NCBI RefSeq assembly: GCF_029989365.1
Contig: NZ_JAPRAQ010000002.1
Coordinates: 124,001-188,000 of the forward strand
Source of the DNA: Bradyrhizobium sp. Arg816
Lineage (GTDB): Bacteria > Pseudomonadota > Alphaproteobacteria > Rhizobiales > Xanthobacteraceae
Direction of reading: 5' to 3'
DNA: 64,000 nucleotides
The notes below the pieces were generated by a model, which was given only the letters and a program-made list of their open reading frames with translations, was not told where the DNA came from and searched no databases. A program made the position numbers and the translations under genes. Shown one piece after another: positions 37,492-37,676 of this stretch. Positions within the stretch are counted from its first letter, which is position 1, and the number at the start of each line of letters is the position of its first letter.

Positions 37492-37518
37492 AAGGCCGCA
37501 CCTTGCGGGTGCGGCCTT
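37492..37518 (-). terminator. Attenuator terminator in the leader of the ArgD-like gene
   Basis: On the minus strand AAGGCCGCACC (37518-37508) and GGTGCGGCCTT (37502-37492) form a perfect 11-bp stem with a 5-nt loop. TCTGCTTTTTG follows. It lies between the leader-peptide stop codon and the ribosome binding site of the transaminase, so it would stop transcription before the gene. The 5' arm can pair instead with GGGTGCG(CC) inside the leader coding sequence (37574-37566), giving an alternative anti-terminator of 7+2 pairs. Confidence 0.85.
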
Positions 37519-37545
37519 CTCGAAAACTCGGCTGAATTCAGTGGT

Positions 37546-37638
37546 TCAGCGGCGTCGTCGGACATGGCGCACCCTCTCGTCGTCGCGGGAGCGACGGCGG
37601 AGCATTTCGGTGCGCTGATGGGTCCGAGCGTTGATCAT
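37546..37638 (-). CDS. Arginine-rich leader peptide (30 aa) upstream of the ArgD-like gene
   Basis: An ATG at 37638 opens a 30-codon frame ending TGA at 37546. Twelve of the 30 residues are arginine, including LRRRSR (codons 13-18), ERVR (21-24) and the final RRRR (27-30), immediately before the stop. It is too short for ordinary gene finding. The Arg run, the downstream terminator and an anti-terminator segment within codons 22-25 have the architecture of ribosome-mediated attenuation, where shortage of charged tRNA-Arg stalls the ribosome. No Shine-Dalgarno is seen, and the predicted transcript start lies within a few bases of the ATG, so it is probably a leaderless leader ORF. Translation itself is inferred. 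Confidence 0.72.
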   Translation of the reverse strand: MINARTHQRTEMLRRRSRDDERVRHVRRRR

Positions 37639-37646
37639 GGGGCGGG

Positions 37647-37676
37647 TCCCTACAGCCGAAGGGCAGGGCTTGTCAA
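37647..37676 (-). promoter_or_regulatory. Predicted sigma-70-type promoter for the Arg leader
   Basis: On the minus strand a perfect TTGACA (37676-37671) is followed after 18 bases by TAGGGA (37652-37647). Initiation about seven bases further on would put the start at roughly 37640, just before the leader ATG at 37638. The -10 box is a poor match, so confidence rests mainly on the -35 hexamer and position. Confidence 0.5.

What the first reader, a model, noticed from the sequence alone, without database searches (positions are those of the whole stretch)
37492..37676. Arginine attenuator: Arg-rich leader peptide, anti-terminator and terminator before an ArgD-like gene
Seen directly: a 30-codon frame with 12 Arg codons (runs at 14-18 and 27-30), a perfect 11-bp terminator stem after its stop, and a leader segment, GGGTGCGCC at codons 22-25, complementary to the terminator's 5' arm (seven pairs, a bulge, then two more). 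A second small hairpin, GCTGAA/TTCAGC (37531-37550), overlaps the leader stop. If the ribosome stalls at codons 14-18 the anti-terminator segment stays free and the gene is transcribed; if it reaches the stop, that segment is covered and the terminator forms. This is the logic of trp/his-type attenuation. I do not recall an arginine version among the classical proteobacterial examples, so it may be undescribed.
Basis: partly seen in the sequence, partly recalled or inferred. Interest (0 to 1): 0.93.

Follow-up and report, generated by a model that had tools for sequence, protein, structure and literature searches.

The report
Arginine attenuator in front of argD
In Bradyrhizobium, the DNA just before a predicted arginine-synthesis gene encodes a tiny peptide packed with arginine, followed by a predicted transcription-stop hairpin; all 80 related genes compared keep the peptide frame, and the arrangement likely switches the gene on only when ribosomes run short of arginine, a control that our searches did not find described for arginine synthesis.

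Summary
A 30-codon ATG frame with 12 Arg codons (37638-37546, minus strand), an 11-bp terminator (37518-37492) and an ArgD gene (PRK03715 type, 37445-36255) lie in series. All 80 related loci examined (best 80 of 198) keep the frame. Of 391 family genomes, 116 have this ArgD, 115 of them with the leader; none has a strong leader hit without the gene. Leader indels keep frame. The run RRRxR ends where a stalled ribosome would begin to cover the antiterminator segment. Promoter spacing predicts a leaderless start. Outside the strong-hit set, 26 of 48 PRK03715 argD genes have an RR leader plus terminator (of 29 with a terminator; 4.2 with shuffled frames). 41 of 42 genomes tested lack ArgR. Ten literature searches found no arginine-biosynthesis attenuator. 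Best reading: a trp/his-type attenuator sensing arginyl-tRNA, new in specificity and widespread. Limits: no expression data; antiterminator covariation is not above shuffles; equilibrium folding without a ribosome does not favour termination.

The parts
37648..37676 (-). predicted promoter: TTGACA (37676-37671), 17 nt, -10-like GTAGGG (37653-37648)
   Evidence: TTGAC[A/G] 36-39 nt before the leader ATG in 80 of 80 loci, 38 nt in 73; consensus of those 73 cGCTTGACA...TGTA. The sigma-70 consensus scan did not call it (0 found).
37546..37638 (-). leader ORF, 30 codons + stop, 12 Arg
   Evidence: distance to the TGTCCGA anchor in one frame in 104 of the 104 loci that have the anchor, of 105
37585..37599 (-). 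Arg control codons 14-18 (RRRSR), within region 1 and its loop
   Evidence: R at these places, counted from the last codon: 80/81, 81/81, 71/81 (codons 14-16) and 61/81 (codon 18) of the distinct leader ORFs of 29 or more codons; stall model
37578..37615 (-). region 1 with inner hairpin CGCCGTCGC/GCGACGACG and GCGCACC (37615-37609), which pairs with region 2 (protector, terminating state)
   Evidence: helix of columns 40-48/53-61 94.3% paired, 3 pairs with changes on both sides; helix 25-28/68-71 93.6%, 1 such pair
37566..37574 (-). region 2, antiterminator segment GGGTGCGCC
   Evidence: sequence; duplex and swap test
37531..37550 (-). stop-codon hairpin GCTGAA/TTCAGC, predicted apex of the antiterminator
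   Evidence: 81.6% of cells paired; its outermost-loop pair exchanges U-A and A-U but is unpaired in 24 of 39 rows
37519..37530 (-). conserved CGAGTTTTCGAG linker, predicted to pair with TCCGACGAC in the antiterminator
   Evidence: item 3; helix 2, 95.8% paired but nearly invariant, so without covariation
37492..37518 (-). intrinsic terminator, regions 3 and 4
   Evidence: outer nine pairs 99.4% paired; A-U, U-A and G-C types at one pair; perfect stem of 8 or more with T-rich tail in 79 of 80 loci, L090 has a bulged one
36255..37445 (-). argD, acetylornithine transaminase (PRK03715 type), regulated gene; AGAGGAG at 37458-37452
   Evidence: NF002985 650 bits over cut-off 568; TIGR00707 413.7 over 410.05

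Best explanation
This is predicted to be a ribosome-controlled transcription attenuator that likely senses arginyl-tRNA and would switch on the argD gene behind it when arginine is short. Transcription likely starts at or within a few bases of the leader ATG, so that a ribosome would load on a leaderless message. If charged tRNA-Arg is scarce, the ribosome would stall with RRRxR (codons 14-18) in its A site, mask region 1, and leave GGGTGCGCC (region 2) free to pair with the terminator's 5' arm, with the stop-codon hairpin as apex of that antiterminator; RNA polymerase would go on into argD. If arginine is plentiful, the ribosome would pass region 2 and leave at the stop; region 2 would be taken by region 1 and the terminator would form. 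Shown here: the parts, their conservation, the spacing and the computed folds. Inferred: start site, stalling, termination, response to arginine.
For: Leader in 81 of 81 loci incl. the window, 28-31 codons, 9-13 Arg. Gene and leader go together: 115 of 116 family genomes with NF002985 over cut-off have an R1 hit at E<1e-20, none has such a hit without the gene; the exception, G037, has its own leader MQYASTNARRRRRARRFSAGAWDMRTR plus terminator. ATG to the TGTCCGA motif is 68, 71 or 74 nt in 104 of 104 loci with the motif, always the same frame, while stop-to-terminator lengths fall in all three classes mod 3. Terminating-state pairs: 92.3% paired against 26-56% slid; 6 pairs and 26 cells with both sides changed, shuffles 2.5 and 10.6. 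Antiterminator complementarity 88.7% against 35-50% slid; where the arm changed to CAACC or CGCCC its own region 2 binds it best (-13.6 v -10.7; -13.7 v -12.8 for the commonest class). Stall model: mean pairing of the arm with the leader frame 0.73-0.77 with RRRxR codons in the A site, 0.23 or less from the codon-21 position on, 0.01 or less at the last five codons. Same design in other orthologues: 26 of 48, against 4.2 when their terminators are kept and the frames shuffled; in 21 of these 26 the arm is held more at the RR stall than at the stop. ArgR absent in 41 of 42 genomes.
Against: No RNA or expression data. In the cut transcript without a ribosome the antiterminator is nearly as likely as with one (0.77 in the window, 0.58 mean), and a stall at any codon before about 19 gives 0.65-0.77, so basal termination must rest on folding order or kinetics. 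Folded alone, the protector part (z -1.3; 19 of 200 shuffles as good) and the antiterminator part (z -2.2; 6 of 200) are not far from shuffles. Antiterminator covariation in fixed columns does not exceed shuffles (195 of 500 reach it); one of five measures (further pair types, 130 of 500) does not either, and such shuffles ignore relatedness. In the swap test the region 2 of the CTCCC lineages binds its arm well (-16.1 v -10.3) but two other arms better (-17.2, -19.1), and L090 and L160 do not gain (-6.6 v -7.2; -11.7 v -11.6). Third codon positions vary hardly more than first and second, so codon bias does not prove translation. Outside the strong-hit set only 5 of 26 best antiterminator duplexes reach the 5% level of shuffles, 22 of 48 orthologues have no called leader, and genomes without the leader lack ArgR too.
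Confidence: 0.86

Rival explanations
1. The Arg-rich nascent peptide itself arrests the ribosome in response to a small molecule (arginine, ornithine or a polyamine), as arrest peptides do, and the same RNA switch follows.
For: Basic runs can slow ribosomes (general knowledge, recalled); Salmonella speF, behind a leader with two Arg codons, answers to ornithine as well as arginine (passages of PMC6386406).
Against: Peptides share little beyond the Arg run across lineages (RRRxR, RRHRR, LRRRRSPLP, METQFTSVLRRHSASRVTRSCGRRQS); no Pfam or NCBIfam match.
Confidence: 0.07
2. The leader is mainly a source of a small trans-acting RNA or peptide (as rnTrpL/peTrpL in S. meliloti), its place before argD being secondary.
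For: Predicted leaderless frame, own promoter and terminator, as in rnTrpL (passages of PMC7298713 and PMC10117765); degenerate copies without argD on plasmids.
Against: 115 of 116 co-occurrence with the gene; the plasmid copy read has lost the ATG; the peptide is not conserved outside the family.
Confidence: 0.04
3. The leader acts on translation or Rho rather than through the intrinsic terminator (speF-like).
For: Nothing here excludes an added layer; speF uses Rho, RNase G and masking of its ribosome site (passages).
Against: A perfect intrinsic-terminator stem with T-rich tail lies behind the leader stop in 79 of 80 loci, a bulged one in L090; a Rho or translational scheme needs none.
Confidence: 0.02
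4. A plain terminator of the upstream gene plus an unrelated Arg-rich frame typical of GC-rich DNA.
For: Arg-rich out-of-frame ORFs are common in GC-rich DNA; an upstream ORF on the same strand ends at 37696.
Against: 1 of 208 window frames reaches this Arg content; promoter spacing, frame and pairings are conserved; 26 of 48 other orthologues against shuffle means of 0.1 (all shuffled) and 4.2 (terminator kept).
Confidence: 0.01

Closest known systems
trp/his-type ribosome-mediated attenuators (E. coli trp, Salmonella his; theory paper PMC1183508, passages read)
   Same: Short leader with a run of regulatory codons, regions 1:2, 2:3 and 3:4, intrinsic terminator, biosynthetic gene of the same amino acid.
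   Different: Arginine; the antiterminator segment lies inside the leader frame 17 nt before the stop; the stop codon sits in a hairpin predicted to cap the antiterminator; predicted leaderless start.
S. meliloti trpL/rnTrpL (PMC7298713, PMC10117765, passages read)
   Same: Alphaproteobacterial attenuator whose RNA begins at the ATG of the leader frame.
   Different: Trp, trpE(G); leaderless start reported there, only predicted here; sequences not compared.
Salmonella speF leader orf34 (PMC6386406, passages read)
   Same: Consecutive Arg codons sense arginine through ribosome pausing.
   Different: Gene is ornithine decarboxylase; outcome through Rho, RNase G and ribosome-site masking; DUF2618 peptide, which the present leader does not match.
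Arginine T-boxes (named in PMC1262725, passage read)
   Same: RNA control of arginine genes; by tRNA charging (recalled).
   Different: Direct tRNA binding, no leader peptide (recalled); no T-box match in the window.
carA leaders of pseudomonads (PMC4997734, passages read) and the carA motif (PMC8632094, passage read)
   Same: Attenuation proposed at a gene shared by arginine and pyrimidine synthesis; a leader peptide in P. aeruginosa.
   Different: Attenuation linked there to pyrimidines; no Arg-codon run in the passages seen; other gene.
Rhodobacterales cysS attenuator uORFC-8-2 (PMC8632094, passage read)
   Same: Comparative prediction of a leader-peptide attenuator in Alphaproteobacteria with tandem codons in the first stem.
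   Different: Cysteine, aminoacyl-tRNA synthetase gene.

Membership tests
trp/his-type ribosome-mediated transcription attenuator | short leader frame with a run of codons for the product amino acid | tested here: met
   81 of 81 loci; frame kept through indels. Translation itself not measured.
trp/his-type ribosome-mediated transcription attenuator | gene behind it makes that amino acid | tested here: met
   NF002985 and TIGR00707 over their cut-offs; enzyme activity not tested
trp/his-type ribosome-mediated transcription attenuator | intrinsic terminator between leader and gene | tested here: met
   79 of 80 loci, L090 bulged
trp/his-type ribosome-mediated transcription attenuator | protector 1:2 pairing | tested here: met
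   conserved, with compensatory changes; alone its fold is not far from shuffles
trp/his-type ribosome-mediated transcription attenuator | antiterminator 2:3 exclusive with 1:2 and 3:4, held by covariation | tested here: inconclusive
   complementarity 88.7% v 35-50% slid, but covariation not above shuffles; swap test clear for two changed arm classes, mixed for others
trp/his-type ribosome-mediated transcription attenuator | regulatory codons placed so that stalling frees region 2 | tested here: met
   stall model, 104 of 105 loci; but region 2 is also free without a ribosome at equilibrium
trp/his-type ribosome-mediated transcription attenuator | read-through rises when the amino acid is short | not testable with these tools
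   needs reporter or term-seq
rnTrpL-like leaderless attenuator | transcript starts at the leader ATG | tested here: inconclusive
   TTGAC-to-ATG 36-39 nt in 80 of 80; no start site mapped
speF orf34 (DUF2618) | DUF2618 peptide before speF | tested here: not met
   no Pfam match at E<=1 for the window peptide and one relative; gene is argD
T-box | T-box covariance model | tested here: not met
   window: only a tRNA at gathering score; leader region: no T-box at E<=5
DUF1127 Arg-rich small proteins | Pfam match | tested here: not met

The most novel reading that the evidence does not exclude
Arginine attenuation is a widespread, so far unnamed regulatory class in Pseudomonadota: a leaderless Arg-run leader plus terminator travels with PRK03715-type argD in Bradyrhizobium and its family, in the Burkholderiales-like order of G706 and in further families, in genomes that almost all lack ArgR, and gives these bacteria their arginine feedback on argD.
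Probability: 0.65. Interest if true: 0.74.

Novelty: new variant of a known kind. Interest (0 to 1): 0.66.

Why it matters
Attenuators are textbook controls for Trp, His, Phe, Thr and branched-chain operons; a 2005 survey names T-boxes as the RNA control of arginine genes (PMC1262725). A conserved Arg-codon attenuator before argD would add arginine to the list, would show how bacteria without ArgR can still sense arginine, and gives a simple system, with one gene and a leaderless leader, to test codon choice among six Arg codons and folding order. It is directly testable in B. diazoefficiens or with a reporter.

Tried and rejected
Rfam at gathering score: only a tRNA in the window; at E<=5 three weak hits below gathering (best: Thr_leader, 18.9 of 55 bits), taken as terminator likeness. 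Weaker R1 hits: 15 looked at (L128-L133, L147-L155), none followed by ArgD in the stretch fetched. An N-terminal extension of ArgD from 37565: frame open into ArgD in only 22 of 79 loci, rejected. An arginine regulon of such leaders: the stretches of 400 nt before argG, argH, argC, argJ and the other argD of the own genome show no Arg leader with a terminator behind it; the other argD has a terminator-like hairpin overlapping a GTG frame with RR, not pursued. In G706, argG and argH show none; argJ has a terminator-like hairpin and, some 200 nt before it, an Arg-rich ATG frame, judged too far. argB, argF, carAB and argC of G706 were not examined (one search had three minus-strand loci unturned, redone). 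Codon-position variability as proof of translation: failed. Fixed-column covariation of the antiterminator: not significant. ArgD tree: leader label needs 4 changes (3-5 in bootstraps), so one origin with losses or several gains is open (21 of the 48 orthologues, those with the full gene held, plus 18 family rows and two outgroups). In one search the ORF length mod 3 is trivially 0; the useful test is. The first control shuffles terminators away too and so flatters the result; one search keeps them.

Rows dropped: one search left out L090 (terminator finder failed on its bulged stem); one search left out L019 and L053 (motif not found); one of 105 loci without the motif in the searched stretch; one search left out L225, same genome as L196; A1 used 30 and A2 39 dereplicated rows. 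Of the strong R1 hits I examined 24; the 30 loci that the call fetched itself (L097-L126) were not examined. One search includes two orthologues below the NF002985 cut-off (G443, G934) and one with a stop inside ArgD (G912); its ORF starts for L168, L172, L196, L210 and L215 may not be the real ones, and for the 27 loci L198-L224 the argD start is taken as the profile match start. L219 and L220 have leader-like frames by eye but were not called.

Full report
OBSERVATION. On the minus strand, leader nucleotide n lies at window 37639-n. The frame at 37638-37546 reads MINARTHQRTEMLRRRSRDDERVRHVRRRR and stop; 12 of 30 residues are Arg. Behind it come the stop-codon hairpin, a CGAGTTTTCGAG linker, an 11-bp terminator stem with a T-rich tail, a ribosome site AGAGGAG, and the gene. 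The gene is ArgD of the PRK03715 type: NF002985 650 bits (cut-off 568), TIGR00707 413.7 (cut-off 410.05). The genome has another ArgD that scores higher in TIGR00707, on another contig. Of 208 ATG frames of 20-45 codons in the window this is the only one with at least 38% Arg.

CONSERVATION. One genome-contig scan with the ArgD protein gave 80 loci (the best 80 of 198). All 80, and the window, have an ATG frame of 28-31 codons with 9-13 Arg in the place of the leader, and TTGAC[A/G] 36-39 nt before its ATG, 38 nt in 73. A perfect stem of 8 or more with a T-rich tail follows the leader stop in 79 of 80; L090 has a bulged stem. A covariance model R1 built from 30 rows was run on 391 genomes of the family: 156 match at E<=0.01, 115 of them at E<1e-20. 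The same genomes were searched for NF002985: 116 over the cut-off. 115 genomes have both, one (G037) the gene alone, none the strong leader hit alone; G322, a congener, lacks both. G037 carries a leader of its own, MQYASTNARRRRRARRFSAGAWDMRTR, with a terminator. I examined 24 of the strong hits, mostly from the divergent end: all 24 are followed by ArgD, 73-84% identical; 15 weaker hits looked at are not.

IS IT TRANSLATED? From the ATG to the nucleotide motif TGTCCGA the distance is 68, 71 or 74 nt in 104 of the 104 loci that have the motif (of 105), always the same frame. Stop-to-terminator distances of 27-35 nt fall into all three classes mod 3. Against this, third codon positions vary hardly more than the others, so RNA structure constrains the same bases. 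Where the inner hairpin changed from CGTCGTCGC/GCGACGATG to CGTCGTCAC/GTGACGATG, the peptide moved from RRRxR to RRHRR: Arg codons were kept next to the changed base pair.

THE SWITCH. RNAalifold on 30 rows and single folds agree on a terminating state: CGGAC/GTCCG, GCGCACC/GGTGCGC (four of its pairs in the consensus) and the inner Arg-codon hairpin, then the stop hairpin and the terminator; whole-leader z-scores are -5.1 to -6.7 for the three leaders folded, while the protector part alone has z -1.3. On a 39-row alignment this state is paired in 92.3% of cells (slid controls 26-56%), with 6 pairs and 26 cells changed on both sides, against 2.5 and 10.6 in shuffles; one of five measures is not above shuffles, and shuffles do not allow for relatedness. 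If the first 38 nt are left out and the transcript ends in the terminator's 5' arm, the window folds into the antiterminator: GTGCGCC with GGCCGCAC, then TCCGACGAC with the conserved linker, and the stop hairpin as apex (z -2.2). Its cells are 88.7% paired (slid 35-50%), but fixed-column covariation does not exceed shuffles. A swap test of region 2 against arms is clear for two changed arm classes: CAACC (L143) -13.6 with its own region 2 against -10.7 with those of the commonest class, CGCCC (3 loci) -13.7 against -12.8, each the best arm for its region 2. For CTCCC (5 loci) the own pair is strong (-16.1 against -10.3), but that region 2 binds two other arms still better. L090 and L160 do not gain.

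STALL MODEL. For 104 of 105 loci I computed how much of the terminator arm pairs with the leader frame, in a transcript that ends before the 3' arm, with a ribosome at each codon. Mean pairing is 0.73-0.77 with the RRRxR codons in the A site, 0.63 one codon further, 0.23 three codons further and 0.01 or less at the last five; the window gives 0.80, 0.60, 0.13 and 0 (0.24 at most between). So the control codons end where the effect ends. Two cautions: a stall at any earlier codon gives 0.65-0.77, and without a ribosome it is 0.58 (window 0.77). At equilibrium the antiterminator competes well, and termination in unstalled leaders must come from the order of folding (1:2 forms first) or from the ribosome's passage. 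This is the weakest link.

BEYOND THE FAMILY. Of 48 orthologues without an R1 hit examined (incl. G037), 26 have an ATG frame of 15-45 codons with RR and at least 12% Arg, followed by an intrinsic terminator before argD; with the whole stretch shuffled the mean is 0.1, maximum 1 in 20 rounds. With terminators kept and only the 250 nt before them shuffled, the 29 loci that have a terminator give a mean of 4.2 and at most 9 in 100 rounds, against 26; for RRR, 0.8 and at most 4, against 19. Examples: MNRIQSELRRRRSPLP, MLSLQTNLRRRRSLLP, MNMIRTLLRRRSPLPLPGKPCA, METQFTSVLRRHSASRVTRSCGRRQS. In 17 of the 26 a TTGAC lies 35-37 nt before an ATG of the frame. L211 repeats the layout with other letters: an Arg-codon hairpin CGTCACTCT/AGAGTGACG and GTGCGGCC against GGCCGCAT. 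In 21 of 26 the arm is held more with the ribosome at RR than at the stop by over 0.2, though only 5 of 26 best duplexes reach the 5% level of shuffles. Twenty-two of 48 have no called leader. An ArgD tree of 41 rows puts the family's 18 genes in one clade (100/100), G037 outside it, and needs 4 changes of the leader label (3-5), so one old origin with losses or several gains stay open.

ARGR. Pfam PF01316 is absent in 41 of 42 genomes tested (present in G595), and found in 9 of 14 control genomes, E. coli and B. subtilis among them. Genomes without the leader lack it too, so absence of ArgR is a setting, not a proof.

WHAT IS KNOWN. Ten searches of open-licence PMC papers found no attenuator with Arg codons before an arginine-synthesis gene; subscription papers are not held, among them the 2004 proteobacterial attenuator survey (seen only as a reference). 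Passages, not whole texts, were read of: speF orf34 (PMC6386406), leaderless trpL (PMC7298713, PMC10117765), theory (PMC1183508), T-boxes for arginine (PMC1262725), carA (PMC4997734, PMC8632094), Naville and Gautheret (PMC2965389), S. lividans leaders, several leaderless, none for Arg (PMC8079986), uORF4u (PMC10219788; no mention of arginine or argD).

VERDICT. An arginine attenuator of the trp/his type by anatomy and comparative evidence, new in specificity, probably leaderless, and wider spread than the finding claims. Response to arginine remains to be shown.

Noticed in passing
L009 2420-2620 (plasmid pNK6a); L128, L129 (G330): Degenerate copies of the leader in five Bradyrhizobium plasmid records (74% identity over 43% of the query; one read, pNK6a) and twice in G330: promoter, region 2 and terminator recognisable, leader ATG lost, no argD found behind; transposase genes near the pNK6a copy.
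   Followed up: partly
L001 about 1375-1400 (own genome C31, other argD): Terminator-like hairpin CGTGCCGCC..GGCGGCACG TTTCGTTTT directly after a TTGACA/TAAGAT promoter-like pair, about 100-125 nt before the other argD; may be a second, different control.
   Followed up: no
window, about 36155-36245: Long inverted repeat (GGGTGGGCAAAGCGAAGCGTGCCCACC ... GGTGGGCACGGCGCTCTGCGCCTTTGCCCACCC) between the convergent ends of argD and an oxidoreductase-like ORF (seen).
   Followed up: no
window 37565-37446: A frame from ATGTCCGAC runs open and in frame into ArgD (40 extra codons); open in only 22 of 79 loci, so automatic annotation may start ArgD wrongly here.
   Followed up: yes
L195, L196, L197, L223: In family f38 the leader contains a GTCTGTGC stretch complementary to the terminator arm (TCACAGGCA/TCACAGACA), with RR or RRRR just before it; possibly a separate version of the switch (three of the four duplexes well within shuffles).
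   Followed up: partly
L130-L132: Weak R1 hits in three Bradyrhizobium genomes share GCTGAA..CAGC and an AAAGGCCGCGCC..GGCGCGGCC terminator, apparently at the end of another gene.
   Followed up: no
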